A model generated the notes under the pieces. It was not told the origin of the DNA, did no database searches, and saw only the letters and a program-made list of their open reading frames with translations. Below, one piece after another: positions 9,586 through 43,621 of a DNA stretch of 64,000 nucleotides (within the stretch, counting starts at the first letter, position 1; every line of letters starts with the position of its first letter). A program made the position numbers and the translations under genes. This DNA is from Tilletia caries (taxonomy: Eukaryota; Basidiomycota; Exobasidiomycetes; Tilletiales; Tilletiaceae): assembly GCA_032718865.1 (NCBI GenBank), contig JALUTQ010000037.1:1240001-1304000 (forward strand), read 5' to 3'.

Positions 9586-10896
9586 ATGTCGGGCGGACCG
9601 TTAGCTTCCTCAGGACAGGAGGTTTCCGACATGTTACGGTGGAACCATATGTTCACTGCTCAGATTCTTGACAGCGCTGGCAACCCAATGCGCTTGTACG
9701 GGGTTGACAGAAGTCTTCGCCGCGTAGAAGCATGTGAGTCAGGCCCGAAACGCTGGAAGAAGTCCGATCCCACTCAACCCAAAGTCGATGTCCCTAAATC
9801 ACAGATGTCGAGGCCGAGGTGGGAGAAAAGTTCTCAGTCAAGATCGACTGTCTGTTCCTACACAGAGAGACGCATGTTGCATACCTCTATCTGGGACAAC
9901 AGTACATCACTGGCGCAATCTGCAAGCCCGACCTTTGGCCAGTAGACCTGAAGGAGCGACAGATCAGCGAAAACGAAGCACAGACGTTGGTGAGTGCCCT
10001 GCATGAGCGACGACCGAGATCGGATAGATTAACACATATGCATTCCCTTCTTCTTTCAGATGTTCTCTAAACCTGCCATGACAGGTGAGCTTTACGGAAC
10101 ACTGGCCTTCAATTATTGCTGTTCTGACCAATGACAAGAAATGAGCTGTACGAGCAGATGACGAGACGAACAGCATCCGGAAGCCAGAGGATGTCGCCAA
10201 GCTGGGTGTGGTGTCAGTCCAGCTGAGGAGGGTGGACAGTCAGCAGCCCATGAAGGACTCGTTTCCGGACGCCTCGATCGGTCCGCAGCAGGCGGTCTAT
10301 GAGCGGGCGAAAAAGGTCGGCGCGATCCAGTTCAGGTGAGTTCGCGCTGGTCCCGCACACAAGCTGTATTACAGGCTGAAAAAACATCTATTCCTTACTA
10401 CATAGTGCTGGACCGAAAATACAGCGTCCAAGTCCAGGGAAGGCGCAGTGCATTATTGATCCCTCCTTCCCGCCAGTTTTCCTCGATTTTCACTGCACCA
10501 CTCGTTTAGGGCTACAGCTACTCGGCCACATTCCGATGGACGGGGCGGATATCTCGTCGCGTTCCAAGAAGCGGTCGAGGGAAGAGGAAGAGAAGAACGA
10601 GGCTGAGAAGATCGAGGCGGAAGAGCGGCGTCTGAGGGTGAGTTTATTCGTCGGCAAGCGTACCCATGCGTTAATGACGACCTTGAGCTGATTATCTCTA
10701 ACAACGACTCCTTCAGAACGAGCTCGAGATCCTGGAGCAGCGCAGACGTTCTCTGGGAAATGCGAGCGGCTCGGGCAGTGCGGGAATGAGAACTAAGACG
10801 AGCCGATCCTCCGTCCCCGTCAAGAAGGAGAAGAGAAAGTTCGACTTCACCCATGGAGGAACTGCGGAAAATCCGTTGGCTATTGCCGACGATTGA
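9586..10896 (+). CDS. DUF7918-like protein, paralog A
   Basis: Six exons: 9586-9733, 9805-9989, 10060-10084 (25 nt), 10158-10335, 10406-10637, 10717-10896; 315 residues in one frame. Visible blocks: an N-terminal ITAQ/FTAQILDSAGNPMRLYG segment, VEAEVGEKFSVKI, LGQQYITG, the microexon core MFSKPAMT, DDETNSIRKPEDVAKLG, QAVYERAKKVGAIQFSAGP, FHCTTRLGLQLLGHIP, a basic NLS-like KKRSREEEE stretch, a coiled-coil segment, and a terminal FDFTHGGTAENPL motif. The overall order resembles the fungal DUF7918 family (beta-rich, function unknown). No signal peptide or membrane segment is seen, so a nuclear or cytosolic protein is inferred. It is the inverted counterpart of paralog E. Confidence 0.8.
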
Positions 10897-11045
10897 ACGA
10901 CGCTTCACCGGCCCCCAGCCACGTCAGAGCCAAACGCACAGTGGCTGCTGCCTGCTGGCGTCCTCGCACTGTCCCTCTCAACTTTTCATTCATCTTCAGG
11001 TTCTTCCACCGCTTCTCTCTTAGTCTCTTCTCGCACCAACGTCAC

Positions 11046-11095
11046 CGTCTCGTCTCGTCTCGTCTCGTCTCGTCTCGTCTCGTCTCGTCTCGTCT
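11046..11095 (+). repeat. CGTCT pentanucleotide array, 10 units
   Basis: Ten perfect tandem CGTCT units between paralogs A and B. The matching position in the other arm (37953-37982) has six units, which accounts for nearly all of the length difference between arms. Confidence 0.9.
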
Positions 11096-11798
11096 CCTCT
11101 GCGCTGCGCCAAAAGGACCAGCAAATACATAGCAATGTTTTTACTATCTCCTTTCCATTCCCCAATCGCCGCTGGATCTTCTGTCTTATCTCAAGAAGCA
11201 AGACCATCGTCTTCAGATTGGAACTCACTGGGAATCTGCGTATGGGAGGTCAAGGCTGAACGACGAGTATTGAATCTGAGGCTATCAAAAATGGCCACAA
11301 CTGAGGAGCTGCGTTAGATGGAAGAGTCTTGTCAGTGCAACGTTCGGCTGAGGAGTGTATAGAGAACAGAGATCAGAGACGCCCTGCCCCAGCGCCTCCC
11401 CATTATCGCGTGTGACTCCTGACGAGGCCAGATGAAAACACCGTCCACTGGCGGCTGGCGCAAGCCGCAAGATACATGCGACCTCGAAGAGCTGGGCCGG
11501 AGAGCCGGGCGCAAGCACATGGTATCCGACTCGCGCGCTTGTGGGCTCCGGGCCTGTGGCAGAAACGGCTGGTTGCCGAGCGGGACGCGAGGAGGCCAAA
11601 CGATCTGATGGGCAGAGAAATGATAAGACTTGGATTAGGAGGAAGAAGGTTGAGCAGACCAGCAGGACACGTATCTGAGGAAAAAGTAGGGAGACGAGGA
11701 TGGAAGATGTAAGTAACGTCAGAAGTTCAGAGCACAGCCAGCGCGAAGAAAAGGGGAGAAAAGAACTGGTGTCGTAGCGATCCCTTCACCGTCAGACG

Positions 11799-11962
11799 TG
11801 CCATGGCATGCCATGGCATGACATGACATGGCATGACAGAGGAAGCACCAGCGACGGAAAGAGGAAGAGGAAAGCGTGGAGAAGGTCAAGGTCGGGTAGG
11901 AGATGGAGATGGAGATGGAAAATCAGAACAAAACTGGCAGCCCAACTGGAACGCGTCGCGTC
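11799..11962. promoter_or_regulatory. Paralog B upstream region with CATG repeats and ACGCGT box
   Basis: A run of overlapping palindromic CATG units (ATGCCATGGCATG type, 11799-11838) is followed at 11951-11962 by ACGCGTCGCGTC, containing the MCB-type hexamer ACGCGT. Equivalent boxes lie upstream of paralogs D, E, F and G. A regulatory role is inferred only from recurrence. Confidence 0.4.
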
Positions 11963-12128
11963 CGCGCAGGCGCGTGAACCGTGCCTCGTTGGCTTTGAGT
12001 TTGAGTGGGTCCTCGAGAAGAGCAACACTTCGAACAAAGATCTTCTCGACCATCACCATCGCATCAAGCGTTCCTTTCCTGTCCCACTTACAGATCATAA
12101 AGCACCAGCGCCAGCAGCAGTACCACAG

Positions 12129-13454
12129 ATGTCAGCTGCGCCTTCAGGTTCATCGGCACCGGCTGTGTTTGATATGCTCCGGTCGGATGGGCTCACTGCT
12201 CAACTCCTGGACAGGACCGGCACGCCGATGCGCTTCTATGGCATCAAGGAGGAGGAGCATCTCGTGACAGCATGTGAGTTTCCGGTACATGCAGAGCGTG
12301 AGTGCCCAACGTTATCAGCTGATCCGTTGGGGTGCGCGTTTCAACCATAGATGTCGAGGCTACGGAGGGAGAACAATTTTCTGTCAAGCTCGACTGTGCG
12401 GTACAGTCACACAACTATTCAGCGAGACTGGGACTGGGGGGCCAACACTTCAAATCTCAATCTTGCCAGCCTCATTGTTGGCCGTCCATTATCAAGAGCA
12501 GATCCATCAGTCAGACGGAAGCTCAGACATTGGTGAGCATCTTGCAGTTACTGCCTGTGAAGCCCGAGAACAGACCAAGATGGACTGATGATACGGATTC
12601 GATTCCCCTGACACGCCTCAGATGTTTTCCAAAGCTGTTCTCACAGGTGAGCATCGCCAAGCAAGCATGCCTTTGCAGTTCGTGCCACTCACCGAAGAAC
12701 ACGGCAGACGACGAGACAAATAGCATCCGAGACCCGGCCGAAGTCGCTGGGCTGGGAGCAATTTCCATCAATATGCACAAAGTGAAGTCCATAAGAAGGC
12801 GGATTGAGAGAAAGTTCAACACAGAAGCCATCGGTCCGCAGCAGGCGATCTACGAACGGGCAAAGAAAGTGGGCGCTGTTCAGCTGAGGTGAGTCACTAT
12901 GTCTGATCCATGTCGGAGACCTTGGGCTACCGCGTTACATACTGACCCGCTATTTCTTTGAGACAACAGCGCCGGGCCAGTCATACAGAAACGAGCCTCA
13001 CCTAAAGTGAAAAGCACGTACGACCGTACGGTTCCGGTCGTCATATTCAAAGTGCACTGTGTCACTCGTGTTAGTCTGCAGCTGCTCGGTTATATCCCGA
13101 AGGAGATCGAAAATAACTCGCCCTGCCCTGCCCAGAAGCGCGCTAGGGAAGAAGATGAAATCCTCGCTGAAGAGACGCGTCTGGAGGTAAGTTCATCCGT
13201 GACTGGCGAAGTGGACCTGTACCTCACGCTTCAGACTCCTTTCTTGTGCTGAGCGTCTTTGAGATTGGAATTTGCAGAAGCAGCTCGAAGAGCTCAAGAG
13301 GCGTCGACGGGTTCTGGGCAATGCAGGCAGCCCGGCAAACGCAGGTCCGAGTACTCAAGCGGACGAATCGTCGTTCACCATCAAGGCGGAGCGGACCGTG
13401 TTTGACTTCAGCCAGGGCGGCACCGCAGACAAACCCTTCACCATTGACGACTGA
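12129..13454 (+). CDS. DUF7918-like protein, paralog B
   Basis: Six exons: 12129-12273, 12351-12532, 12622-12646 (25 nt), 12708-12888, 12970-13186, 13278-13454; 308 residues with an intact frame. It has the family blocks in order: LTAQLLDRTGTPMRFYG, VEATEGEQFSVKL, MFSKAVLT across the microexon, DDETNSIRDPAEVAGLG, QAIYERAKKVGAVQLSAGP, FKVHCVTRVSLQLLGYIP, KKRAREE-like basic segment, coiled coil, and FDFSQGGTADKPFTIDD at the end. Its 5' part is nearly identical to paralog D while exons 4-6 have diverged. Function unknown. Confidence 0.8.
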
Positions 13455-18004: not shown

Positions 18005-20524
18005 TTAGACTCTGCTGGAGCCCCGCAGATACAAAGACGATGGGTGCTGACCGGGAACCCAAGTGCGTTGATGATTGTGAGCGCGGAGACGTGTGTCAAC
18101 GTCACGGAGCAGTTGTTGATTCCTCGAGTTTGCGTCCCAAAAGTTGTCGATGAATCCTGACGATGCAAACGGCTCCTCGCGTTCCAGCAAGGCCTGCATA
18201 CGCGTGAGCATAAGCCGTGCTCGCTGGAACCGGGCCTGCACTGACAAACTGCTTTCACCTCCCTCATCCCTCTCTTCTCCCTCGTCCCATTCGCCCCTTA
18301 TGCTGCGTGCATCGGCTTCGCTGTCATCGTCGCTACGGGCACCTTCGTCGATACCAGACCCATCGTCGGCACCAGCTGTAGCAGCGTCAGCATTCGAAGC
18401 CTGGTTGTTGTGGGGGTCGTCTTTTGTGCCATCTGATGCGCCTGCGGGCCTGACGATGTCGGGATGCGTCCAGAAGGGGCTCTGACGATGCCGTTTCATT
18501 GTGCGCAAGGCAGGCACGGTCATGGGTGGGGCCAAGCTTACCAAATGCTTGCACAGCAGGAACCGATGCATGGGCAAAGCAGGGCATGCACATTTCCACG
18601 CATGTACGTCCGTTCGGTAGCGTTGAATAGCCTCCGCGCTGACCTCCTTTGCTGCCTCTTTTTTCCAAGCTACCGCCATGCTTGTTCGCCAGGCAGGTCT
18701 TGCGATCCGGTCGGTCCCTGCGCGCAATGCCACCACGCGCTTGACGGCTGTCGGCAGTACACGCGTCTGCAAGATGAAGGTGACAAGGTCGATACGTGGT
18801 CGGGCAAAGCGGTGTAAGTAGTCATGCTTGATGACTCGCCAGTGAGATTCGTTGACCATTGTCGACTTGAGAATGGGGATTGACTCGTTTGCTCCCCTTG
18901 CCCACAGCTTCCATTCCTTGCCCGTGTACCAATTGGCCCATAGATAGGCCCACACGCGTGCCCATCCCTTTGCCTTGCACAAGTCGTAGGCCTCCGTGGC
19001 CTGCCTGCGATACAACTGCTCTTGTGTGAGGTATATACCGTGTAGCGTTGGAAACGCAGTGTGCTCGTTCAGATGTTTGGACAGCAAGTCGAGGATGATG
19101 ACGCTGTCTGCTTTGTTGCACTCCAGCCTGCCAGGCTCATCCCATTGTGACGCGTCCTTCTTGCACTCGCACTTGCACCTTTCCGAGTGATGGCGAAGGT
19201 TCTTTACGACCCCCCAACACGGCTCAAGGTCGGGTATCGTACGAATGGCGTCCCAAGGGTTGTATTTGCGCGTGCTTGTGGGTTTCGTTGAGGCGAGCTT
19301 CTGTCGCACCGCTCGTCGTACGTGCCAATAGCAAAACTGGACCTTTGCGGTAGGCCATACGTTGGCGATAGCAGCAAGCTCAGCGCTATCCTTGTCACAG
19401 CCGACAAAAGTAGGAGTGAGCCCACGACCCTTAAGCGCCTGTAACACCTCCGTAAGAACGCTGATTTTGCGCCCATCTGCCTCCATGTCCTTCGTGTTGA
19501 GAAAGCAGTATGCCAGTGGAACGCCCATCCCGTCCAGCTCAGCGAGGATGCCGAAGAGCTCATGGCCGGCGTTGTTGGTTCCGTATGTTGAGTCTATTGA
19601 GATCTCTACCGTGGTTGATGCCAGCATGCTGATCAGTTCCTCTGCTATCAGCAGCATTCCTCGCACCTGCCCATCACGCTCGATCAACTTCGCAGACATT
19701 CTACAGCGTGGACCATCGCCGCGCGTACTTTCGGCGTTGACGAGCTGCATAGCCGACTGGAAGGGATCGTCTTGAAGTCGCCAGATAGCCGAGGATAGCG
19801 CCTGCCACCAATAATAGACTTGCTTTTGCGTGATTTGGCCTACAACAGCATCTGGAAAGGTGGCGCGCATGTCTTGAAATATCTGGCCGGGGGTCGAATC
19901 GAGGCGACCTTCAATGTATTCCAGGACCACAGGTGGCAGAGTTCAATCACAGTAAGGATCGTGAGAGGTATGACGAAAGCGTATGTTGAGCAGGGGGGCT
20001 AGAGGTTTGAACGTCAGGCGCAACGAGCTATTGCATTGATGCTGGGCCACGGAATCTGCTGCTGCTCGGGTACCCTTGTTCCCGTGGGGCTGATGAGGAC
20101 CGCTAACGCAGCGACGACTGGCATCCTGGGAGCAGTGGAAGCGGCTTGCGCATCCGTCGACTGTAACCAAGGTATCGTGATACTTGAAGCAAAAACCTGT
20201 AGTCTCCCATATAACGCGAGCCATAGCGTGCGCGTCGTTTCGAGCCGCCTTCTCCTCGTCTGCGTTTTCGTGTGCGTTGGCTCTTGATACGCGGATGGGA
20301 AGGTCATCATAGCTGAGGCAGACGTCCGTGTGGAGACTGTGGGACGCGCTCTGGCCATGGTTCTTGAACGCTTGCTGAACGTCAACCCAGAGATCATTGG
20401 GCACTGCTCGCTTTAGGTGTTTCTGGCAAGTTTTCCGCCTCTGACCGCTGCTGGTTTGAGGGAAGTCATCAATAGGACGGTATCCTTTGCAGCTCGTGCA
20501 CCAGGATCGTGTCGAGTCGTCCAT
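18005..20524 (-). pseudogene. MULE transposase with N-terminal zinc finger and SWIM domain, one in-frame TGA
   Basis: One frame runs from ATG at 20524 to 18005, interrupted only by TGA at 19943-19945. The first part (193 residues) has a CX2C...CX2H zinc-binding block (WCTSCKG...KTCQKH). The second (641 residues from an internal Met at 19930) has the MULE catalytic region: ISIDSTYGTN with the first Asp, FVGCDKDSAE with the second, and the CYWHVRRAV block. A SWIM finger CAC...LLCKHLV follows. The tail is acidic and low in complexity. The flanking residues of the stop read like conserved MULE sequence, so a point mutation, possibly TGG to TGA, is inferred. An intron removing it is not evident. 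Confidence 0.82.
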
Positions 20525-22788: not shown

Positions 22789-23673
22789 TCAGGACAGTAG
22801 TGGTAAGGAGAAGATTCCGAGCATCATAGGCAGGGAGAAGGTCCACAGCGCCATTGCCGCCAGAGAGGACCCGTCGGCCCGTGGTCGAAGTGCATATCCC
22901 GCCCCAGCCACCCCGGCCGTCGAGGCAGGTCCATCATGGTCGTGCTTGCTGAGTGGGTTGGAGGTATTGGGAACCATGGCCGGATCCGCTAGCAGCGTAT
23001 CGGCGTAGTTGGGACAGGCCAGGGGCATGCCTCGATCCGCGACCTGAGACTGGAAAATCGTGTTATTGAAAGCGGGGTCCGAAGGCAACGGCGGGTCCTT
23101 AGGGCAGCACGCCGAGTCCTCCTGGATCCAATCCGAGCCGACCACCTTGGGGTTGTTGTAGCCTCGCCAGGCTTTGCACGAGACGAAGGAGTAGGAAACG
23201 TTCCAGACGCCGTAGTCGTGTGTGCCCGGGAAGAAATCGGAGGGGATGGCAACGGAGGGCCAGGCGAGGTCGAAATGGACGTACGAGCCCAGCCCGTTCG
23301 GTCCGTTCACGGTGGCGTTGCAGTGGGGCGGGCCTAACGGGCACGAATCGATGACCTTGACAACGATACTGGGCGCGGTTCCGTTCTCCTGTTCTTCCTC
23401 CGAATACGCGATTCCAGCATCGCCAGGGTTGGGATTGTCAATCATGCTGCCTTGCCCAGCCAAGTCGGCAAGGGGTGTTGAAATGAGGGTGAGTTTGGCG
23501 CAGAGACCGCATGCAGGGCCGAACGAGGTCTCGCTGCCGAAGCTTAGGACATTCAAGGCGGCCGAGGGCATCGTCGGTGCATTTCCGACACAGCCGCAGG
23601 CGGCCGTGTAGAAGGTCGGCAAGTCGTAGTGGGTCATCGTCGCCCATCCGGACTCGGGGAGACGCCAGGTCAT
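22789..23673 (-). CDS. GH45/expansin-like secreted, GPI-anchored protein (first exon unresolved)
   Basis: From Met at 23673 the 294 residues include GWATMTHYDLP, YTAACGCVG, FGPACGLCAKL, IVVKVIDSCPLG, NGLGSYVHFDLAWPS and HDYGVWNVSY, the double-psi barrel of GH45 subfamily C endoglucanases and expansin-like proteins. The HFD aspartate, acid catalyst in GH45, is present. The C-terminus has a hydrophobic tail after a Ser/Gly linker, consistent with GPI attachment. A hydrophobic stretch LSLPSALLCLN lies upstream in frame after an acceptor at about 23709, so the signal peptide probably begins in a short first exon I cannot place with confidence. Cellulose or beta-glucan wall modification is the likely role; true hydrolysis versus loosening cannot be told. 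Confidence 0.78.
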   Translation of the reverse strand: MTWRLPESGWATMTHYDLPTFYTAACGCVGNAPTMPSAALNVLSFGSETSFGPACGLCAKLTLISTPLADLAGQGSMIDNPNPGDAGIAYSEEEQENGTAPSIVVKVIDSCPLGPPHCNATVNGPNGLGSYVHFDLAWPSVAIPSDFFPGTHDYGVWNVSYSFVSCKAWRGYNNPKVVGSDWIQEDSACCPKDPPLPSDPAFNNTIFQSQVADRGMPLACPNYADTLLADPAMVPNTSNPLSKHDHDGPASTAGVAGAGYALRPRADGSSLAAMALWTFSLPMMLGIFSLPLLS

Positions 23674-29076: not shown

Positions 29077-30300
29077 CCTGACCCCTCGTCACACTTCATC
29101 CTCGCACCTCGACCAAACTCACGATGAGCACATACGCATACTGTCATCCTCTCAAGCATCCTATCTGCGCGCTGCTGCTTGGTTAGTTCGGAGGATTGCG
29201 TCCACTGACCTCCTCCTCTTGTCTCCGCAGTGCGCAGTATTCAAACTCCTCACATCCAGCTGACAGCTCCCAAGTCCCACTTTTTGTTTCCTTTCTCATA
29301 CAGCTAACATCTGCTACACTTCCGCTTATCTTCTTTGAGCCCTTTGCCTCTCGCGCCCAACACGACGCGTACCTAGATGTCGCTGCTTGCTCAATGCTCT
29401 CGTCTTCCTTGTCCTCCCCTTCTGCATTCCTCTCACAGGTCACAACGTCTACTTGCTTCTCTCCCTTTGCAGTTTGCCTTTCTTACACCGATCGCAGGGC
29501 CCTCCACAACTTCAAGGTATGTGTGCCCATCCACCTTCGGCTGCCGCAGATCTTCTCACTCACTCACTCACTCACTCACTTCTCGTTCACGTTGACAGAC
29601 TCATCAACCAGGCTAGCCATGACCGGTGTTCTCCTGCAATCTCGAGCGAGCCGCTGTCGGTCCTCCGGCCTCCCACTTACACAGCACACTCGTTCTCACT
29701 TCTCGAGCCAGAAGAACGTCTTTCACCTATTCATTGTTGGCACTTGGCATAGCATTTATCTGCAATCCACTTCATCGTTTTCAATGTCCAATATGCTGTC
29801 TGAAGGCTGAGAGTAAGGAGCAGAAGCAAGCTAGAAATGTACATAGGTAGACAGTGGTGGATTGCGGTCTATTTCGTCTAAGTTCTGTGTGGAAATGGCA
29901 CTCCGGGTCGCTCCTTGCAAGTGTGCTCAGGCGTGTTTGTGCACGCCGCGGCTTCTGGCCATTGAGCAATTCATTACGGCCGAGAGAGCATCACGTGAGC
30001 GACATTACAGCACACACACACGCCTGAGTTTCTGAGGCTACCGTTTGTGGGGCTTTTGTGGAGCATCCGTGGAAAGCAAACCGCAACCCCTGCCAAAAGC
30101 TGATCTGGCACCTTTGCCACGTGAGTGTTGTCCAAATTTGCGTTGCGGTTGACAATCTAGTCGCCGAGCATCGAAAACGACCACGTGGAATTTTTTTCAC
30201 CACCTTCAAAACAGTCACACACCAAAAGGGAGCATAACGATCCTCATTAAATAGACGCAACAACGCCGTTTGAGGCAAAACTTACGCGAGAGAGGGCATG
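29077..30300. other. Non-coding stretch with simple repeats
   Basis: Contains a CTCA tetranucleotide run (about 29556-29580) and a small inverted pair, CTCAGGCGTGT near 29928 and ACACGCCTGAG near 30021. Several open frames on both strands show no recognisable protein; a short spliced gene near 29124 cannot be excluded. Confidence 0.4.
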
Positions 30301-31019
30301 CTGATGAGGTTGAGTGACTGTGGATGGCTACAGGAGCGCGTGAGAGCGGGAGTGCGGAAGGGGAGGGGGCAAGGGGAAGGCGTGCGTGCTGGGCCTTGGG
30401 AGCACACACAGGCGCTTTCCACTCATTTTTACTGTCGGGCAAAAAGCGCGCTAAGCCACATTTAAAGAGTGAAGTTTGGTGGAGCTTTCGTGGAGCTTTC
30501 GTGGAGAAAAAAGTTCATTTTGGAGGTTTCGTGGAGACTCCACCAAACCTCCACGAACCATCCACATTTTTTTCTACTGAGCCTCACTCAAGTATCTCAA
30601 GCTCCAGCCTCATCGCTTCAAAGCCTCGACGTGGAGAAATAGTGTCAAAGGAGCGCGAAGATGTGACAAGTCAATTTCAGTTGTTTGCGTGGGGAGGGAG
30701 AAGTATTCTGTTCACCGTAACAAGCGAGGGTTGCTGAATTTTCGAAGGGGAGCGCACACGGTAGTCTGCAAGCGTTACGTGCTCCAGCATGGAGAGCAAG
30801 AAGAACGCCCGTCCCTGATGCGTGATGCATGATGTCCGGTGATGGTTGAGTGACTGTGGAGCAAGGTGAAGTGGAAAGACGGGGGGTTGCGGATGGTGCT
30901 TCGAGGTAGGAGAGAAGAAGGGTGCCTCAATGATGGTCGACAGACGAGATGGCTTGATCGCCGTTCAGAGCGTGTCGATGTTATACGACGTATGTCGAGC
31001 ATGACGCCCGGTAAATCGC
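30301..31019. other. GTGGAG-rich stretch with hairpin and a direct repeat
   Basis: TTGAGTGACTGTGGA occurs at about 30310 and again at about 30846. Between them are repeated GGAGCTTTCGTGGAG units and a hairpin (30522-30552). No gene seen. The second half is probably SCD6 3' sequence. Confidence 0.45.
30522..30552. repeat. GTGGAG hairpin
   Basis: GGAGGTTTCGTGGAG, one A, then CTCCACCAAACCTCC: a 15-bp stem with one mismatch and a one-base centre. Confidence 0.7.
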
Positions 31020-32990
31020 TCAACCACGCATGCCTGCCACCTGCGCAGGTCCAGCTGGACCACCGCGGTATCCACCCCTCCCACGTCCTCGTCCACGCCC
31101 ACGTCCTCGACCGCCAAATCCGCGGTCCCCTCCGTTGTGACCACCACCGACGGCAGCGCCCGTGTCGCCAAAGGTCATCATATTCTTGCGCTCCTCCGCC
31201 ATACGGTTCGCTCGCGCGCCTCCAAAGGCTCCTCCACCTCCTCCGCCGCCCATACCTCCGCCTCCATCGCGTCCTCCTCCTCCTCCTCCTCCTCCTCCTC
31301 CCATACCTCCTTCGTAACCACCTCGTCGTCCACCTCCACCTCCGCCTCCACCTCCGCCGCCACGACCACGTCCTCCACCGCCGGACGAATGACCACGTCC
31401 CGCACCGGGCGTGACGCGTTCGTAGCGCTCCTTGACTTCCGAACTGATGTCATCGAAGAAGGACGACTTCTTGTCGTACAGCACGCCCGGGCTGGCACCT
31501 GGGATGGAGCTGAGGGGTGCGGGAGGGATGGAATCGAGCAAGTCAGACACGCCGTTCAAGCCTTGACCGTTCGTCGAAGCACTGGCTGCAACACCATCGC
31601 CGCCGCCGTTCTGCTTGGAAGCAGCCTCCTTTTCCTTCTGGAATCGAGCATTGGCGCTCTCGAAGTCGAACTCTTCGTTGAGAGCCGCACCCGCGACGGG
31701 CCCAAGACCGGTGTTGGGTTGTCGGAACACCGAGGCTCCGTTGGCCGAGTCACCCGCAGGGAGGTCAGAACGGTTCTCACGTGCGCCTCCACGACCTCTG
31801 TGGCCGTTGCGACCTCCGCCGCCTGCTGGGGTCTTAGAGGGGGACTGCGCAGGGTTAGCGTGGTGCTGGGTCGTCTGGGCCTGGTTCTGTGCGGCTTGCG
31901 CTGCGGCGTGAGCGGCGGCGGCACGAGGCACGGCGGGCAGAGCGTGCTTCTGCTGAGCCTGGGCCTGACCTTGACCTTGGGCTTGGGCTTGAGACGAAGC
32001 TGCGACAGTTGGCGCAGCGGGTATCACGGCAGGTGCTGGCTGAGGCTCTTGTGCGGGCGTCTGGGCTTTGCTTTCGCGAGCAGCAGTAGGCGCTGAAGGC
32101 GGCGCATCAGCTTGGGCTTGCGTCGGTGCAGACACTGGTGCTGGCGAGGGGGCCGCGACTGGAGCTGGGGCCGGAGCAGATGCAGTCGCGACAGAAGGAG
32201 CGGGCGCTGGGGAAGCTTCGGGCTTGGGCTGCTGTGCTGGCTGTGCAGATGCAGCCTGAATACCCGGCTGAGATTGAGCAGAAACGTGGCTTGGTGTAGC
32301 TGGCGAGGGCGCGCCAAATGGATTTGGGCCGGGTGGGCCGAACCCTCGTGGACCGGTGCCGGGAGGGCCAAATGCGCCAGGCGGCGGAGGTGGGCCGCCA
32401 AACTGGCCTCCATGCATAGGAGGGGGTCCGAGGTCGAACCCTGGAGGTCCAAAGGGACTCCTTCCGGGAGGGCCAAAGGGTCCGGGTGCTTGTGGTCCAC
32501 TCGACTGCAGATAAATGCGGTGAAAATTCAGCATTCAACTATCTTCTTCGAATCATTCTGTGTGGGTGATGAATGTGCTTACCCCGAGAATGGCAGGGTC
32601 GTGGAACTGGGGCGGAGGCGGGGGTGGCTGATGCCGTGGCGGAGATGGATCGTCGATCTTGAGGTCCTTTACATCGGCGGCCCGGAAGACGATGTACTCG
32701 TACAAGTTTGCGTTGGGCGGGATCTCGTCGTGGGCCCGATTCTGAGCTGCGAGTCGTCCCTCGGTGCCCCAGCTGCGCACCTTCTCGAGGGAGATGGTGG
32801 CCTGTGCGGGGTCGACCTGTGCGAGCAGACCCTGGTAGCGGATGTCGGAGCGGGAGATGAGGGAGATGAGGGCACCGATCAGATGGTTGGCCCCCCCACC
32901 GGCAGCTGCTCCCTGTGCGGCTGCCTGCTGCGGGTCGTTGCTGTTGCTGTTGGTGCCGAGGCCTGCTGGCGGTGGCTGCGGCGACGCCAT
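31020..32990 (-). CDS. SCD6: Scd6/Lsm14 family mRNA decapping and translation repressor
   Basis: Exons 32990-32583 and 32504-31020 give 630 residues. The first exon holds the LSm14 domain: LIGALISLISRSDIRYQGLLAQVD, ATISLEKVRSWGTEGR, EYIVFRAADVKDLKI. A long Pro/Gly/Ala/Gln-rich linker follows. Then come an FDF-type motif (NEEFDFESANARF), an FFD box (KKSSFFDDISSE), a TFG box (ERKNMMTFGDT) and two RGG/GGR blocks at the C-terminus. This is the complete Scd6/Rap55/Lsm14 plan. These P-body proteins bind eIF4G through RGG and Dhh1 through the FDF/TFG region. The protein is long because of the linker. It is divergent with CDC37, 240 bp apart, so the two share a promoter. Confidence 0.93.
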
Positions 32991-33230
32991 GGCTGTTTCC
33001 TGCTTGCTGTTTCCTTGTCTGCGTGGATGGTCGTGGTGGAAGCCAGGCAGGATGCATTCCCCCCTTGCGAGAGCGAGGATCGTCTGAGCACTGCCCTGCA
33101 GCGACACCCTGTTGCGAGAATATGCATGGACCCACCCACCCCGACCTTCCACATGTACATAGAAGAGCGACCTGCTTCTCAACCACCACCTTCACTTGGT
33201 AGCATTCATACATACATACACAGAGTGACG

Positions 33231-35194
33231 ATGCCGCTGAACTACTCGAAGTGGGACAACATCGAGCTCTCGGACGACAGCGATGTCGAGGTCCACCCCA
33301 ATGTCGACAAGAAGAGGTATGTCTTTGGTCGGCTAGAGCATGCATTTATTCCCGGCGACTGACTTCCCTTCTCTCTGCTGCGGCGCATACAGCTTCATTC
33401 GATGGAAGCAGAGCGATATCCACGAAAAGCGGGAACAGCGAAAGGCTCTTCGAGGTCAGCTCCAGGCGGAGCGTACCACGAATACAGCTCTCCGGCCGCG
33501 TCTGCTCGATTTGAAGGAAGGTCTCCGCGTTTCCGGAGCACCCTCCTTCAAGAGCGAGCTCGAGCGACTCACTGCCGAGCGAGTTGCCAAGGGAAACAAG
33601 GACAGCGGACCGAACGGCGGTCCCAGCATCGACGACCTGATTCTCAAGCTTCTTCATATCATCAATGACGAACCTACTGTCAAAGCCGCGGCAGCCAAAT
33701 CAGCTCGAACCGCTACTGCTGCTGGAGCTGAGGACAGTGGACCCTCGTCCGCTGCTTCGACCTCGTCTCCAACAGATGAGCTTACCAAGGTACTCAGCAC
33801 CCAGGTCGATTCGCATCTGTCAAAGCTTGACACGCGCCAGAACGACATCGATACCCAGCTCACGGCCATTGATGAGGAGGAAAGCCGCAAAATCACCACA
33901 GATGGGATTCGCGAAGGCTGGAGCAGCGGGGTATGTACTTATCTAATGTCAATATTCCACAGTAATCGCCTGGACTCACAATTTTTGTCAATTCTCACAG
34001 CATGTATCCAAGGTCGAGGCAGAACCAGAGCCCGACGTCGTGAAACCGAAGTCGAAAGTGAAGAAGGAGACTGTCACCAGTGTCGAGACTCTCAATAGTC
34101 CCTCGGCCAGCTCTTCCAAGAAAGCATCGACCGACGACAACGACGATGATGACGATGACGAGTTGCCCGAACTCACTCCTACTCTTGATGCCTGGATCGA
34201 GCTTCCCACGGTCCTGCCCAACTTCCCACTCACCCAGTCAGTCCTGCCAGCCTCGTACAACCCCGCCAAGTCACTGGACCCGGCACCGTTCGAAGTCGCT
34301 CTCAAGTTCCTTGCCTCCCACAAGCGTCTGATCACTCAGCGCGTCGCTAAGGACGACGGCGACGACCAAGATCCCACCGATGCCTGCCTATTTGAAGCAT
34401 TCCAGGCGCAGATGCAGGGTAAGGCAGATCGAGCACGACGCTGTGTCGAGAAGGGCCTGATGCTGCAATACTGCCGCAAGCTTGGTCCCGATGGAGTGAA
34501 CCTCTTCTTCCGCAGGTGAGTAGCATGTACCCTTGATTGTCTCCATTCGCCCTCACATCACGCCATAGCATTGACCTCATCCGTCCACCGGTTCAGGATC
34601 ATGGGTGGCGAACCCAAGGCAGCCGTGCTTTACATCAACGACGTCTTCACCACCTACACCCGCATCGTCGAACGCGCCGCCGTCCTGAACGACAAGCACG
34701 GCCCAAGCGGAGGCGATGTTGAGCAGATCCAGCTCGTACCCGAAGACGAAAACACGGTCATCTCCTTCAACGTCCCCTCCGAGCCGCCCTCGGTCGAGGA
34801 TCTCAAGGTCGACCTCCCCACGGAGGAAGAGCTTGCGCAGGCGAACGAACAAGCTCGGGCCGAGGGTCGACCGGAGATGCCTGTCCTGACGGTGGCGGAC
34901 GTCCATGCGCTCCTCACGCGTCGTTGGGAGATCTTCAGCGGCTTCAAGACGGATCTCCAGGAGGCACTGCGGACGGAGAAGCTCGTCGAGGTCAACAAAG
35001 TGCTGGGCGAGATGGATGTCGTGGAGGCGGAGGAGGCGGTCCGTCTGATGGACGAGGCCAACATCCTTGAGTTCGGTAGCGGAGCTGATGGCGATGTGGT
35101 GAGTGTTGTCCTCGGTGTGCTTGCTGATCACGGACGCAACGCTGATAAGTCGAGTCTCTTTCTGTCACAGATCGTCGACAAGACGGGCAAGTGA
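33231..35194 (+). CDS. CDC37: Hsp90 co-chaperone Cdc37
   Basis: Five exons (33231-33316, 33393-33930, 34001-34515, 34597-35098, 35171-35194) give 554 residues. The N-terminus is the diagnostic YSKWDNIELSDDSDVEVHPNVDKKS with the CK2-type serine at position 14, followed by FIRWKQ and the coiled-coil kinase-binding region. The central Hsp90-binding domain includes FEAFQAQMQGK and CVEKGLMLQYCRKLGPDGVNLFF. The C-terminal helical part ends in IVDKTGK. Cdc37 delivers protein kinases to Hsp90. The frame is clean through all introns; the last exon is only 24 nt. Confidence 0.95.
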
Positions 35195-35589: not shown

Positions 35590-36918
35590 TCAGTCGCTGA
35601 GGTCGGCAATCGTCAAGGGGTCGTTTGCGGTGCCTCCGCGGCTAAAATCGAACTTGGCCCGCTCCCTCTTGACGCTTAAGGGAGCCTCTTCCGCTTGGGC
35701 ACTTGATCCCGCGTTCCTCGAGCTTTCTGCGTCGGCCAGGACCCGTCTCCTCTTCTCAACCTCCTCGAGCTGGTTCTGTATGATTCAATTTCAAAGCTGG
35801 TCAGACCGAGGCCCGAGGGCACAAGCTTGGGAGCATGATAATACATCCACTTGCCCAGTGATCCATACTCACCTTCAGGCGCTGTGATTCAACCTCAAGC
35901 TCCTCCTCTTCCCTTGAGCGCTTCTTACTGGGTATTGAGGTACTTGTGTCCTCCTCCTTCGGAATGTAGTCGAGTAGCTGTAGGCCCAGGCGAGTGGCGC
36001 AATGCACTCTGAACTTGACGGCCGGAACCTGAGTATCGTTAATGGGGATCGACCGAGGTGCAGCTAATGCCTGAATGACCGGCCCGGCGCTTTTATCTCG
36101 AGGAAACAGTGGATCAGTATGCGATCATCCCACACAGGGATCGTACTTGTTGACTCACCCCAGCTGGACAGCGCCCACTTTCTTTGCGCGCTCGTAGATC
36201 GCCTGCTTTGGGCCAATCGCGACTGTGCTGTAAACTGGCCGCTTCATCTGGTACCTGGACTTCACTTTTTGCATCACGATAGAGATTTCTCCCAGGCGAG
36301 CGATTTCTGCCGGGTCTCGAATGCTGTTTGCCTCGTCATCTGCCGTGTTCATTGGTAAGCGTGACGAAGTCCAAAATCATCCTTTCTGGGCGAAGCTCAC
36401 CTGTGAGGGCAGCTTTGGAAAACATCTGGGGCGTGTCAGGGGAATTGAATGCGTATCAGCAGTCCATCTTGGGCTATTCTCGGGCTTCACAGGCAGTAAC
36501 TGCAAGATGCTCACCAAGGTCTGAGCTTCCGTATGACTGATGGGTCTGTTCTCGATGATGGACGGCCAACAATGAGGCTGGCAAGATTGAGATTTGAAGT
36601 GTTGGCCCCCCAGTCCCAGTCTCGCTGAATAGTTGTGTGACTGTACCGCACAGTCGAGCTTGACAGAAAATTGTTCTCCCTCCGTAGCCTCGACATCTAT
36701 GGTTGAAACGCGCACCCCAACGGATCAGCTGATAACGTTGGGCACTCACGCTCTGCATGTACCGGAAACTCACATGCTGTCACGAGATGCTCCTCCTCCT
36801 TGATGCCATAGAAGCGCATCGGCGTGCCGGTCCTGTCCAGGAGTTGAGCAGTGAGCCCATCCGACCGGAGCATATCAACCACAGCCGGTGCCGATGAACC
36901 TGAAGGCGCAGCTGACAT
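35590..36918 (-). CDS. DUF7918-like protein, paralog D
   Basis: Six exons on the minus strand: 36918-36774, 36696-36515, 36425-36401 (25 nt), 36339-36159, 36089-35873, 35775-35590; 311 residues in frame. Exons 1 and 2 are nearly identical to paralog B, while later exons differ: QMKRPVYSTVAIGPKQAIYERAKKVGAVQL, KFRVHCATRLGLQLLDYIP, SKKRSREEEELE, and terminal FDFSRGGTANDPLTIADLSD. It has the same basic, coiled-coil and FDF/GGT organisation as the family. It is the B-equivalent in the right arm of the inverted duplication. Function unknown. Confidence 0.8.
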
Positions 36919-38250
36919 CTGTGGTACTGCTGCTGGCGCTGGTGCTTTATGATCTGTAAGTGGGACAGGAAAGGAACGCTTGATGCGATGGTGATGGTCG
37001 AGAAGATCTTTGTTCGAAGTGTTGCTCTTCTCGAGGACCCACTCAAACTCAAAGCCAACGAGGCACGGTTCACGCGCCTGCGCGGACGCGACGCGTTCCA
37101 GTTGGGCTGCCAGTTTTGTTCTGATTTTCCATCTCCATCTCCATCTCCTACCCGACCTTGACCTTCTCCACGCTTTCCTCTTCCTCTTTCCGTCGCTGGT
37201 GCTTCCTCTGTCATGCCATGTCATGTCATGCCATGGCATGCCATGGCACGTCTGACGGTGAAGGGATCGCTACGACACCAGTTCTTTTCTCCCCTTTTCT
37301 TCGCGCTGGCTGTGCTCTGAACTTCTGACGTTACTTACATCTTCCATCCTCGTCTCCCTACTTTTTCCTCAGATACGTGTCCTGCTGGTCTGCTCAACCT
37401 TCTTCCTCCTAATCCAAGTCTTATCATTTCTCTGCCCATCAGATCGTTTGGCCTCCTCGCGTCCCGCTCGGCAACCAGCCGTTTCTGCCACAGGCCCGGA
37501 GCCCACAAGCGCGCGAGTCGGATACCATGTGCTTGCGCCCGGCTCTCCGGCCCAGCTCTTCGAGGTCGCATGTATCTTGCGGCTTGCGCCAGCCGCCAGT
37601 GGACGGTGTTTTTCATCTGGCCTCGTCAGGAGTCACACGCGATAATGGGGAGGCGCTGGGGCAGGGCGTCTCTGATCTCTGTTCTCTATACACTCCTCAG
37701 CCGAACGTTGCACTGACAAGACTCTTCCATCTAACGCAGCTCCTCAGTTGTGGCCATTTTTGATAGCCTCAGATTCAATACTCGTCGTTCAGCCTTGACC
37801 TCCCATACGCAGATTCCCAGTGAGTTCCAATCTGAAGACGATGGTCTTGCTTCTTGAGATAAGACAGAAGATCCAGCGGCGATTGGGGAATGGAAAGGAG
37901 ATAGTAAAAACATTGCTATGTATTTGCTGGTCCTTTTGGCGCAGCGCAGAGGAGACGAGACGAGACGAGACGAGACGAGACGGTGACGTTGGTGCGAGAA
38001 GAGACTAAGAGAGAAGCGGTGGAAGAACCTGAAGATGAATGAAAAGTTGAGAGGGACAGTGTGAGGACGCCAGCAGGCAGCAGCCACTGTGCGTTTGGCT
38101 CTGACGTGGCTGGGGGCCGGTGAAGCGTCGTTCAATCGTCGGCAATAGCCAACGGATTTTCCGCAGTTCCTCCATGGGTGAAGTCGAACTTTCTCTTCTC
38201 CTTCTTGACGGGGACGGAGGATCGGCTCGTCTTAGTTCTCGTTCCCGCAC
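36465..38250 (-). repeat. Right arm core of inverted duplication (near-identical tract)
   Basis: Reverse complement of about 10765-12570. It spans from the intron after exon 2 of paralog D to the last exon of paralog E, including the 1.2 kb between the genes. The GACGC/AGACG pentamer array here has six units (37953-37982). Confidence 0.85.
37085..37250. promoter_or_regulatory. Paralog D upstream box and CATG repeats
   Basis: GACGCGACGCGTT at 37085-37097 and CATG repeats at about 37212-37247 mirror the region upstream of paralog B. Confidence 0.4.
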
Positions 38251-39461
38251 TGCCTGAGCCGCTCGCATTGCTCAGAAGACGCCTACGTCTCTCCAACGTT
38301 TCGAGCTCGTTCTGAACGACGCAATGTCAGAATAATTCAGAGAAAGGACATCCGTATGCATGGGTCCCGCTTAAATATTGACAAACTCACCCTCAGACGC
38401 CGCTCTTCAGCCTCAATGTTCTCGGCCTCGTTCTTCTCTTCCTCTTCCCTCGACCGCTTCTTGGAAGGCGACGAGATCTCCGCCTCGTCCATCGGAATGT
38501 GACCGAGTAACTGTAATCCTAAACAAGTGGTGCAGTGAAAATCGAGGAAAACTTGGGGGAAAAGGGGGTCGATGATGCACTGCGCCTTCCCTGGATTTCG
38601 GCGCTGGATTGTCGGCCCAGCGCTGGCGAGTTTTAGAAGATAGATATCACATGTTGTCCTCAGCAAGTAATAAAGCCGTGCTGCAGTTGAAGGGACCAGG
38701 GCGAACTCACCTGAATTGAATCGCGCCGACCTTCTTCGCCCGCTCATAGACCGCCTGCTGCGGACCAATCGAGGCGTCCGGAAACGATTCCTTCATGGGC
38801 TGCTCATTGTTTACCCTCCTCAGCTGGACTGATACCACACCCAGCTTAGCAACATCCTCTGGTTTCCGGATGCTGTTCGTCTCATCATCTGCCCATTTCT
38901 TGTCTTTGGTCAGAAACTCAGAACAGCCGAAAACGAAGGCCAGTTTCCGTAAAGCTTACCTGTGACAGCAGGCTTAGAGAACATCTGAAAGAAGAAGGTA
39001 ATATGCGTCAGCCCATCTGGACTCGGTCGTCGCTCATGCAGATTGCAGGGTACTCACCAACGTCTGTGCTTCGTTCTCACTGATCTGCCGCTCCTTCAGG
39101 TTTACTGGCCAATGGCTGGGCTTGCAGACGGCACCAGTGATGTACTGTTGTCCCAGATGAAGGTATACAGCATGTGTGCCTTTCCGGAACAGACAATTGA
39201 CCTTGACTGAGAACTGTTCCCCCTCCTTGGCCTCGACGTCTGTAATTAGGGAAGTCGACTTTGGAATAAGTGGGATCGACTTTTTCCAGCGCTTCGGGTT
39301 CTGAACTCACACGCTTCTACACGGTGAAGGAGACTCCTCTTAACCCCGTACAAGCGCATAGGGTTGCCAGCGCTGTCGAGAATCTGAGCAGTGATCCTAT
39401 CGTTCCACCGTAACATGTCGGTAACTGCTTGTCCCGACGCGGCTGTCGGTCCGCCAGGCAT
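38132..39461 (-). CDS. DUF7918-like protein, paralog E
   Basis: Six exons: 39461-39311, 39239-39058, 38984-38960 (25 nt), 38888-38711, 38622-38391, 38311-38132; 315 residues, the same length as paralog A. Blocks include ITAQILDSAGNPMRLYG, VEAKEGEQFSVKV, MFSKPAVT, DDETNSIRKPEDVAKLG, GPQQAVYERAKKVGAIQF, FHCTTCLGLQLLGHIP, SKKRSREEEEKNE and FDFTHGGTAENPLAIADD. It is the inverted counterpart of paralog A: the last exon is almost identical and the earlier exons are diverged. Function unknown. Confidence 0.8.
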
Positions 39462-40430: not shown

Positions 40431-41777
40431 TCAAACGTTCAAAAAAGCAGCCGTCAGGGGGTTCTCCCTCGTGCCTCCGGTGCTGAAGTCGAAGGCTCTC
40501 TTCTCACGCTTGACGCGAATGGCATTCTCATCCGGTCGGGCATTTTCCGCGTTGTCCGTATCGCCCGCAATCACGCGTCGCCGCTTCTTAAGGTTCTCGA
40601 GCTCCTTCTGCGGTAGGAAAAGTCGCAATGATATATCAGCACGGGGAGAGAATAAAGAGTGGGGGATCACACTTACCTGCAGTCGTTGTTCCTCAGCATC
40701 GAGCTCCTCCTCCTCCCTCGTACGCTTCTGCTTGGCGGTAGGCGCCGTCTCCACTGGTATGATACCGTTGAGCTGCAGTCCAATACGAGTTGTGCAGTGG
40801 AACACAAACTCAGTCGGTGGGAAAGTGTCGTCGTAGATGCATCCCACTTGTTCCGTCCTTGGCTTGTTGATCGTCGGCCCAGCACTTGTGAATCACCACG
40901 TTACGACTCAGTATGTTGTTGTGGTGATGCCTCGCGTTCAACTATGGGACTCACCTGATCTGGACAGCGCCTAATTGCTTTGTTCGCTCATAGACAGCCT
41001 TCTGCGGGCCGAGGACGTCTTGCGGGTAAAGCTGTACACAGGGATACGTTTGCAACACTTTTCGCACGATGATGGAAATCATTCCAAGACCAGCTACCTC
41101 GGCAGGGTTGCGGATGCTGTTCGCCTCGTCATCTGTCAATGATATTCGTCAGTGCAGCACAAAATAATCTGAAGCCTTAAAACTTCCATCTCACCTGTGA
41201 CAGCCGGTTTGGAGAACATCTGAGGGGGATGAAGGAGTAGGTGAATTAGTCGCATGAGTCGCATTCAATATGACCATGAAGCTGTGGAGGCTCACCAGGG
41301 TCTGAGCTACAGTCTCGCTAATAGGTCGATCTTTGATCGTCAGCGCCCCCCCCCCCCCGCCAGGATAGCTAAGCTGACTCGAGACAAACTGCAGCCCGAG
41401 GAACAGAGCTGCACTGTAAGTGCAGCGTGCGTTCAGAGAGTCAATAATCTGGACTGAGAATTCTTCTCCTTCTTTGGCCTCGATGTCTGCAATAGTATCC
41501 GCAGATGCCACAAAGTCAGCTTGGCGTAAGATGCTTCAGATCGGAATTGTTGGTACTCACACGCATGAATGCGCCCCATATGGTCATAGGCGCAGAAGCG
41601 CATGGGCAGTGAATTGCCGGTACGGTCAAGCAACCGAGCGATGAAGCCTTGATGGTAAATGTTCTTGAGAGGGAAGAGCGCGTCCGTGACTGTATCAGCC
41701 GTCTCGCCGCTTGGTGCCGGTGAAGATGATGATGGTGGGTTGAACATTAGTCCTGCCATTCCTGTGGCTGGGATCAT
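40431..41777 (-). CDS. DUF7918-like protein, paralog F
   Basis: Six exons: 41777-41561, 41486-41296, 41219-41195 (25 nt), 41132-40955, 40884-40677, 40607-40431; 331 residues in frame. The first exon is longer than in the other copies, with a Ser/Pro-rich N-terminus before GFIARLLDRTGNSLPMRFCAYD. Later blocks: IEAKEGEEFSVQI, MFSKPAVT, DDEANSIRNPAEVAGLG, KAVYERTKQLGAVQISAGP, FVFHCTTRIGLQLNGIIP, KRTREEEELD and FDFSTGGTRENPL, ending in a different tail (TAAFLNV). A C-run of about 13 bases on plus (from about 41344) encodes a poly-Gly stretch in exon 2. Function unknown. Confidence 0.78.
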
Positions 41778-42331
41778 GATATCTGTGGCTTGAGTCTGTG
41801 AACTTAAGGAGGCGAGAGTTGTTGTAGTGCGAATGGAGACTGGCAGAGTGGAGGGTGAGAAAGTGTTAGAGTGAGGAGGATGGTGGTAGTAGGAAAAAAG
41901 TGTTGGTCTCCTCGAGGCGCGGTGGTTCTCGGTACGCGATGCGACGCGATTTTTTTCGACGCGATTTATTGACTCGAGCGTGACGCGACGTGCTATATGC
42001 GAATCGCGTTTGTGCCGGGGCTCAGACTCAGAAATAAGAAAGCGGGTATTGGGTCCTGTACGTAGGGCTTGCGAAGAAGTAGCTCGAGGTGAGGGTGTGA
42101 GATGTAAAAGCTTGCCGCTCAGCGTTAGCAGAAGGGAACATGACATTCAGTAGATCCAAGATGGAGATGTATGTTCTGCAAATGAAAAGGCTCGGCGCAA
42201 GAAGGGGGACCTGGAGAGACCATAGCAATCTGCAAGCAGGAGCAGAATGTGTCATGTTGATTCCGACCGTGTTGTGGCGTCTCTTGCAATCTGACGCCTC
42301 TTGCGGTGAAGAGGCGACATCGGAGAACCAG
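41778..42331. promoter_or_regulatory. Upstream region of paralog F with three GACGCGA boxes
   Basis: GCGACGCGAT at about 41941-41950, CGACGCGATT at about 41957-41966 and GTGACGCGACG at about 41980-41990, within about 230 bp of the start. No gene otherwise. Confidence 0.4.
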
Positions 42332-43621
42332 TCATTCGTCGTCGATAGCGAAGGGTGCATCTGCCGTGCCACCCCGGCTGAAGTCAAACACCGTCCGCTC
42401 TCTCTTCACGCTGATCGACGATTTGCCAGCCTGCGCGACCGCACTACTCGAGCTGTCCGCCTCGTCCAGTATCCGTCTCCGCTTATCAAGTCTGTCCAGC
42501 TCGTCCTGCAGGTTGACATTCCAAATCGAGCTCAGTCCAAGGGAGAGAAGGCGCGAAAAGCAGAATGAAAGTGGTACTCACTCTGAGTCGTTTTTGTTCG
42601 ACCTCAATATCATCTTGCTCCCTGGACCGCTTCTTGGGGGAGATCGGCGGCGCCTCGATTTGTGTTGGGATTGGTATGTGACCGAGAAGCTGTAGTCCGA
42701 CGTGAGTGGTGCAATGGATTGTGAAAGTGACCTTTTCGAACGTCTCATCATAGATGGGCAACACCGGAGGTTGGCTTGGCTTGGATATCGTGGGACCAAC
42801 GCTTGAGGTGTTGTCCAAGTCGTGGGTCAGTACTGTGTTTACGTCTCACTCCTGGCCAAGACGTTATGTGCTCACCCAAGCTGTACAGCGCCCACCTTCT
42901 TGGCCCTCTCGTAGATGGCCTTCTGAGGACCGATGTCTTCGGTCGAATACAGACGCTCCTCGCAGCTTTGCGTGCTCTCCACTTTCCGCACCTCGATACG
43001 GATTTCTCCCAAGCGAGCGACTTCCTCCGGCTTGCGAATGCAGTTCACCTCGTCATCTGACACAGCTCTTCGTCAGTACCAACTACGAAAGGCTCGAAAG
43101 GAAGAGTGGCCGACACTCACCTGTGACTTTCGGTTTGGAAAACATCTGATGTTTAGAGACAGAGGATCATTAGCAACGTTCCAGTCATTCCCGAACAGCT
43201 ATCGAAAAGGAAATGCTCACCAACGGCTGGGCTTCGGTCGTGCTGATGTATCGCTCCCCTATATTGCATGGCCAGTCGTCAGGGCCGCAGATGCGTCCAG
43301 CGACAAATTGTCCCCCGAAGGATAGATGTACAGAGAATTCGCCGGCACGAATTTTGGCTTTTCTGCGAGCCTTGATAGAGAATTGCTCTCCTTCCTTGGC
43401 CTCGACCCCTACGAAGATGATCGCACCCAATGGGATCAGCGCAACTTGCGGAATCTTGTAACTGATTTTCACTTACATGCCTCAGCCGAGTTCCCGTCCT
43501 TCCTTATGCCATATAAGCGCATGGCAGAGTCGGCACTGTCGATGAGGAGAATGCAGAACTTTCTACAGTCAAGCCATATGCCGTTCCGGCTGGGCCGCGA
43601 TTGGTCTGATGGTTCGGACAT
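42332..43621 (-). CDS. DUF7918-like protein, paralog G
   Basis: Six exons: 43621-43477, 43408-43221, 43145-43121 (25 nt), 43056-42876, 42801-42582, 42505-42332; 310 residues in frame. The first exon is diverged (LDCRKFCILLIDSADSAMRLYG); the rest keep the family blocks: VEAKEGEQFSIKA, FGGQFVAGRICG, MFSKPKVT, DDEVNCIRKPEEVARLG, KAIYERAKKVGAVQLG, FTIHCTTHVGLQLLGHIP, PKKRSREQDD and FDFSRGGTADAPFAIDDE. Function unknown. Confidence 0.78.

What the first reader, a model, noticed from the sequence alone, without database searches (positions are those of the whole stretch)
9586..43621. Local expansion of a DUF7918-like family: seven copies with one rigid gene plan
Seven paralogs (A, B, C plus; D, E, F, G minus) in 34 kb all have six exons with phases 1-0-1-2-0 and a third exon of exactly 25 nt coding the IFSKP/MFSKP core. 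Proteins share a basic NLS-like stretch, a coiled coil and a terminal FDF..GGT motif. Seen in sequence; the family name is from memory and its function is not known. Fast-evolving tandem families in fungi often take part in self-recognition or host interaction, but that is only inference.
Basis: partly seen in the sequence, partly recalled or inferred. Interest (0 to 1): 0.75.

Follow-up and report, generated by a model that had tools for sequence, protein, structure and literature searches.

The report
Cluster of putative SUMO-target DUF7918 genes
A wheat bunt fungus carries seven related genes of an unstudied protein family close together; two pairs form a mirror-image duplication partly overwritten by copying, and all share a tail that looks like an attachment site for the small protein tag SUMO.

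Summary
The observation largely holds. Six of seven copies (A, B, D, E, F, G) splice cleanly into six exons, phases 1-0-1-2-0, third exon 25 nt, and match Pfam DUF7918 above its cut-off. C differs: its exon 4 frame stops early and exon 1 is unclear. The plan is family-wide, not special to this cluster: of five dispersed paralogs, three keep all of it and five keep the 25-nt exon. Nor is this one recent burst: the window copies are not one clade. Only A/E and B/D are recent pairs, arms of an inverted duplication; 1,682 aligned nt (from 10788 to 12489) differ by two substitutions and two indels, while the exons beyond differ by 8-37%: recent gene conversion.

New here: the tail holds a SUMO-acceptor consensus (V/I-K-x-E) whose K and E are invariant in 30 aligned proteins from two subphyla. 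Pucciniomycotina relatives mostly end in LSDSD/E with a strict SUMO-interacting core; the window copies lack that core. Best reading: nuclear coiled-coil proteins regulated by SUMO, untested. A host-interaction role is unlikely: no signal-peptide-like start, and similar groups occur in yeasts not known (recalled) as plant pathogens.

The parts
9586..10896 (+). copy A, six exons: 9586-9733, 9805-9989, 10060-10084, 10158-10335, 10406-10637, 10717-10896
   Evidence: deposited P0007 is an exact substring; PF25534 39.4 bits
12129..13454 (+). copy B, six exons: 12129-12273, 12351-12532, 12622-12646, 12708-12888, 12970-13186, 13278-13454
   Evidence: deposited P0012 from exon 3 on; PF25534 47.1 bits
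23942..25347 (+). copy C, diverged and probably not intact: exon 2 24173-24357, exon 3 24452-24476, exon 4 24556-24762 with in-frame TGA at 24621, exon 5 24830-25061, exon 6 25168-25347; exon 1 uncertain
   Evidence: relation by exons 5-6 to other family members (best E 6.7e-9 outside itself)
35590..36918 (-). copy D, six exons (36774-36918, 36515-36696, 36401-36425, 36159-36339, 35873-36089, 35590-35775)
   Evidence: deposited P0008 from late exon 2 on; PF25534 37.4 bits
38132..39461 (-). copy E, six exons (39311-39461, 39058-39239, 38960-38984, 38711-38888, 38391-38622, 38132-38311)
   Evidence: deposited P0005; PF25534 42.2 bits
40431..41777 (-). copy F, six exons (41561-41777, 41296-41486, 41195-41219, 40955-41132, 40677-40884, 40431-40607); deposited P0018 starts at a later ATG
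   Evidence: PF25534 27.3 bits, just over the cut-off
42332..43621 (-). copy G, six exons (43477-43621, 43221-43408, 43121-43145, 42876-43056, 42582-42801, 42332-42505); deposited P0001 starts at a later ATG
   Evidence: PF25534 45.6 bits
10788..12489 (+). left arm of the near-identical (conversion) tract: end of A exon 6, A-B spacer, B exon 1, most of B exon 2
   Evidence: 2 substitutions, one 20-nt and one 1-nt indel against 36558-38240; windows
36558..38240 (-). right arm of the same tract (D exon 1 and most of exon 2, D-E spacer, end of E exon 6)
9586..13454 (+). left arm of the older inverted duplication (A-B block), paired with 35590-39461
   Evidence: A/E exons 84-92% identical, B/D exons 4-6 63-75%

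Best explanation
The locus is part of a Tilletia DUF7918 family of about a dozen genes. Several old lineages sit together here (A/E, B/D, F, G and a probably broken C); an A-B block was duplicated in inverted orientation to give D-E, and ectopic gene conversion has since copied 1.7 kb between the arms, so that B and D share their first exon and most of the second, and A and E their last codons. The proteins most likely work in the nucleus: a beta-rich domain (confidently predicted; Ig-like only by weak matches) would bind an unknown partner, a coiled coil would pair the chains, and the disordered tail would be modified by SUMO at its invariant Psi-K-x-E lysine; in the Pucciniomycotina relatives a C-terminal SUMO-interacting motif would let modified molecules hold one another or other SUMO-modified proteins together. 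Shown: gene models, family, duplication, identity tract, conservation of the motif, predicted folds. Inferred: conversion as the cause of the tract, nuclear site, SUMO modification, pairing, scaffold role. In Tilletia the SUMO-binding end is weak or degenerate.
For: Gene plan and family. Identity profile with sharp edges: spacer 99.9% against A/E exons 84-92%, and for B/D no synonymous difference inside against dS 0.71 outside. Psi-K-x-[DE] in the last 110 residues of 11 of 11 complete proteins of this genome, 7 of 7 other Tilletia proteins with tails and 28 of 29 other relatives (27 named Sporobolomyces, Rhodotorula or Rhodosporidiobolus, two without organism name); the same pattern reversed in 2 of 11, 3 of 7 and 1 of 29; shuffled tails give on average 3.3, 2.5 and 7.7 and reach the observed count in 0, 2 and 0 of 5000. 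In a 30-protein alignment six columns are invariant and two are the K and E of this motif, with nine residue types between them and V, I or (once) P before. 27 of those 29 end in LSDS[DE], 13 of them exactly in VIVLSDSD, one letter from the Daxx SIM IIVLSDSD quoted in PMC8616421 section 2.3. A gene that reads like SUMO is in this genome (C4:1682900-1684000; judged by eye). Structure: beta domain with block means of 80 or more, mostly above 90, then a long helix, then a disordered tail, in both models.
Against: No experiment. The strict SIM core (hXhh or hhXh of I, V, L) is found in 0 of 11 proteins of this genome and 1 of 7 other Tilletia, against 23 of 29 of the rest. Family members are related, so the counts are not independent. 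A four-residue motif can be kept for another reason, for instance nuclear import. PMC13213312 (passages read) notes that such motifs also occur in many unmodified proteins. No expression data.
Confidence: 0.5

Rival explanations
1. The conserved V-K-x-E is part of a nuclear import signal (basic patch), not a SUMO site.
For: In many Pucciniomycotina rows the motif reads K-[RK]-[VI]-K-x-E, like the c-Myc type import signal (recalled); several Tilletia tails have basic residues after it, such as VKREKR.
Against: The E is invariant and should not be needed for import; T. indica tails P0009, P0014 and P0017 keep VKAEP or VKVEP with no basic run around it; a separate basic patch (KKRSRE in 4 of 6, KRARE or KRTRE in the other two) precedes the coiled coil in the window copies.
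Confidence: 0.25
2. The cluster is a fast-evolving self-recognition family, with gene conversion shuffling halves of paralogs to make new specificities.
For: Clustered copies, inverted duplication, a tract that makes B and D share exon 1 and most of exon 2 but differ in exons 4-6.
Against: dN/dS 0.16-0.47 in 30 of 30 whole-gene pairs; the tract makes copies more alike, not more different; no known recognition domain by Pfam in the intact copies.
Confidence: 0.1
3. The proteins are host-interaction effectors.
Against: No signal-peptide-like N-terminus (crude test); relatives apparently on common contigs in Sporobolomyces pararoseus, S. ruberrimus and Rhodotorula kratochvilovae, yeasts not known as plant pathogens (lifestyle recalled); basic patches and the K-x-E tail point to the nucleus.
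Confidence: 0.05
4. The near-identical tract is not conversion but a young inverted duplication whose flanks only look older, or an assembly artefact.
For: Not excluded from a single assembly.
Against: Alignable homology continues through both whole genes beyond the tract, at 57-93% in 100-nt windows. Deposited P0005 and P0007 (T. controversa, partial) stop about 75 nt inside one edge, and P0008 (T. laevis, partial) begins 14 nt outside the other, as expected where short-read contigs break at a repeat (contig ends inferred, not seen).
Confidence: 0.1

Closest known systems
Pfam PF25534 DUF7918
   Same: Beta domain matched by 6 of 6 intact window models (F over the second half only in its best stretch); Tilletia proteins are deposited under that name or carry the precomputed match, as do most Sporobolomyces hits.
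   Different: Pfam covers only the beta domain; the coiled coil, K-x-E tail and C-terminal acidic end lie outside it. Homologues P0013 and P0019 of this genome are missed by the profile.
SUMO-modified nuclear scaffolds with a SIM (PML, Daxx)
   Same: SUMO consensus lysine; coiled coil (in PML, recalled); in the Pucciniomycotina relatives a C-terminal hydrophobic-acidic SIM, VIVLSDSD against Daxx IIVLSDSD.
   Different: No sequence relationship to PML or Daxx was found or expected; the folded part is a beta domain; the window copies lack a strict SIM core; no experimental evidence.
Ig-like sandwiches of the RhoGDI, PDE6D and TEAD YAP-binding type
GCNA proteins (PMC5098910, passages read)
   Same: Rapidly evolving disordered region with conserved SUMO-interacting motifs.
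   Different: No shared domain seen; human GCNA has a protease domain and a zinc finger.

Membership tests
PF25534 DUF7918 | whole-protein score at or above the curated 27 bits | tested here: met
   6 of 6 intact window models, 27.3-47.1 bits; F only just
PF25534 DUF7918 | same for copy C | tested here: inconclusive
   single exons 2, 5 and 6 gave no DUF7918 match, as short pieces may; C was not read through
SUMO/SIM nuclear scaffold (PML/Daxx-like) | Psi-K-x-E acceptor consensus | tested here: met
   11 of 11 complete own-genome proteins; C also has VKPE in exon 6
SUMO/SIM nuclear scaffold (PML/Daxx-like) | strict SIM core (hXhh or hhXh) near the C-terminus in the window's family | tested here: not met
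   0 of 11 own-genome proteins; 1 of 7 other Tilletia; 23 of 29 of the other relatives
SUMO/SIM nuclear scaffold (PML/Daxx-like) | self-association by coiled coil | tested here: inconclusive
   one long helix predicted; no multimer run
SUMO/SIM nuclear scaffold (PML/Daxx-like) | actual SUMO modification and nuclear bodies | not testable with these tools
   needs proteomics and microscopy
Secreted effector | N-terminal signal peptide | tested here: not met
   highest mean hydropathy over 15 residues starting within the first 25 positions is 1.21 or less in 6 of 6 (a crude test, no dedicated predictor)
RhoGDI/PDE6D/TEAD-type fold | structural match well above background | tested here: inconclusive

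The most novel reading that the evidence does not exclude
DUF7918 proteins are the core of an unrecognised basidiomycete nuclear body built on SUMO and SIM contacts, analogous to PML bodies but with a beta-sandwich ligand domain; clusters such as this one diversify that domain while conversion keeps tails and spacers alike, and the inverted arms could flip the 24-kb interval between them.
Probability: 0.15. Interest if true: 0.75.

Novelty: new member of a known kind. Interest (0 to 1): 0.42.

Why it matters
Searches of the held paper library for DUF7918 and for PF25534 found no paper. A SUMO-acceptor consensus shared by two subphyla, with a Daxx-like SIM in one of them, gives a first testable function for the family. 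The locus also looks like a clean case of gene conversion between inverted paralogs in a wheat bunt fungus, and it suggests that short-read assemblies break exactly there.

Tried and rejected
A six-frame search of the genome with the Pfam profile found nothing, and nothing in its controls either, probably because the exons are too short; a search with D as protein worked. A C39 hit is only the 3' end of an A/E-type gene, with a stop just before it. A C28 hit with C's tail (E 0.016) looked like chance on reading the frames by eye. Foldseek gave no match at E 0.001 or better for either model. The PDB sequence search gave only two rows, sodium channel, E 0.75 and 0.77. ORFs in the A-B spacer were listed and look like chance, without a further test. 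Host-effector and positive-selection readings were set aside. A Rad60-SLD scan gave 14 matches, many of which look like ubiquitin repeats; one locus reads like SUMO by eye. Paper searches on Tilletia with gene conversion (7 papers, 7 listed), on SUMOylation with Ustilago or Basidiomycota (836 papers, 8 listed) and on Tilletia controversa genomes and effectors (36 papers, 15 listed) showed no title on this family; of these only passages of PMC9172201 were read.
Full report
What is there. The window lies in a 38.1-Mb genome of 40 contigs. Six deposited proteins of the Tilletia controversa/caries/laevis complex are exact substrings of six window models. I read all seven copies in three frames and spliced six of them. 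A, B, D, E, F and G each have six exons with GT-AG introns, phases 1-0-1-2-0, a 25-nt third exon and a full open frame of 308-331 residues. The deposited predictions agree in the parts they cover when aligned back with introns allowed. Some are partial: those of A and E stop 10 residues early, that of B begins at exon 3, that of D late in exon 2, and those of G and F start at later ATGs.

Copy C. C keeps splice-site-flanked exons 2 to 6, including a 25-nt exon 3 (IFSKP..), but exon 4 reads DDEDPSIVKDAAKLANFGVVE and then TGA at 24621, and the exon's length does not carry the frame to exon 5. Exon 1 is ambiguous. Whether this is decay, a sequencing error or unusual splicing I cannot tell; the frame was left as found.

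Not one burst. The genome holds at least five more full members, on C19, C3 and C40 (three), and a 3' scrap on C39. Fitted with their deposited proteins, three of these five (C19, C3, P0010 on C40) have the whole plan; P0013 keeps phases 1-0-1-2 and then has other introns; P0011 has exon 2 split and lacks the last intron; all five have the 25-nt exon. So the plan is inherited, not special to the cluster. On a 25-protein tree the six window copies need four label changes. F groups with two T. walkeri genes of consecutive locus tags (98/99), B with D (100/99), A with E (99/99), G stands alone, and B/D lean to the C40 trio (88/84, below the starred level). Synonymous distances exceed 1 in 27 of 28 pairs among eight of the genes, and dN/dS is 0.16-0.47 in those and in A/E and B/D.

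Duplication and conversion. A-B and E-D are the arms of an inverted repeat. Identity along the arms is 84-92% in A/E exons; then, from 10788 to 12489, 1,682 aligned nt have two substitutions, a 20-nt indel in a short tandem repeat and a 1-nt indel; then it falls to 63-75% in B/D exons 4 to 6. The spacer is 99.9% identical where aligned, more than any A/E exon. Selection is not expected to do that to a spacer; recent exchange does. B and D have no synonymous difference in 94 codons inside the tract and dS 0.71 outside it; A/E outside it have dS 0.38, so the two pairs do not share one simple age. That deposited A, E and D proteins end near the tract edges suggests that the repeat also breaks short-read contigs in T. 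controversa and T. laevis; I did not see those contigs.

The tail. Counting in last-110-residue tails gave 11 of 11, 7 of 7 and 28 of 29 for own genome, other Tilletia and other relatives, with the reversed motif at 2, 3 and 1 as control. Shuffled tails reached these counts in 0, 2 and 0 of 5000. C, not being spliced, was outside the count, as were Tilletia proteins without complete tails or repeating an own copy. In 30 aligned proteins (of 53 fetched; fragments and many Tilletia rows left out) the invariant columns are M1, E48, A49, F122, K339 and E341; the last two are this motif. Psi is V 26, I 3, P 1, and the x position takes nine residue types. The pattern is the classical SUMO consensus as given in PMC13213312 (passages read). 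F122 is the F of the FSK core, coded by the 25-nt exon in Tilletia.

The end of the chain. Of the 29 relatives outside Tilletia, 27 end in LSDSD or LSDSE, 13 exactly in VIVLSDSD, with a strict SIM core in 23; the Daxx SIM is IIVLSDSD and the core rule is hXhh or hhXh (PMC8616421 sections 2.1 and 2.3 read). That the Daxx motif also lies at the very C-terminus is recalled. Tilletia ends, such as PLTIADLSD, PFTIDD and PLDIDDSSEE, are hydrophobic-acidic but fail the strict core in 11 of 11 own proteins and 6 of 7 others. So for the window the acceptor half is strong and the binder half is weak. Tilletia is Ustilaginomycotina; Sporobolomyces and Rhodotorula are Pucciniomycotina.

Reading. I take these for nuclear, coiled-coil, SUMO-regulated proteins (about 0.5). 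The chief rival is that K-x-E belongs to an import signal. It fits the Pucciniomycotina K-R-V-K-x-E well, but not the T. indica tails that keep VKAEP or VKVEP without a basic run. Host interaction is disfavoured: no signal-peptide-like start by a crude hydropathy test, and similar groups in yeasts. That those lie together is inferred from shared contig lengths and locus tags: four S. pararoseus JCM3765 genes on 473,735 nt, four S. ruberrimus JCM16303 genes on 353,783 nt, two R. kratochvilovae genes on 1,597,588 nt.

Noticed in passing
window 686-6268: Two identical 276-nt direct repeats (686-961, 5993-6268) flank a Ty1/copia-type pol reading frame (3065-4846 -): an LTR retrotransposon with identical ends, so probably recent, 3 kb before the cluster.
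   Followed up: partly
window 18008-19942: MULE transposase domain frame on the minus strand between B and C.
   Followed up: no
window 6692-8728 and 22792-34095: Ordinary genes lie beside and between the copies: a protein kinase (6692-8728 +), an expansin-like frame (EXPB1 domain, 22792-23730 -) and Cdc37 (about 33.2-34.1 kb +); a weak FDF-domain hit on 31023-32534 - is below the Pfam cut-off.
   Followed up: no
L043:1009-1071 (C39): A stray 3' end of an A/E-type gene, coding FDFSRGGTAENPLTIADD with a matching 3' flank and a stop just before it.
   Followed up: partly
window 41296-41486: Copy F has a run of 13 G in exon 2 coding glycines; deposited P0020 (T. caries) lacks this stretch, so length may vary or the annotation differ.
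   Followed up: no
window 57287-59206: Two short inverted repeat pairs (95% and 86%) with arms about 1.4-1.8 kb apart, possibly a small mobile element.
   Followed up: no
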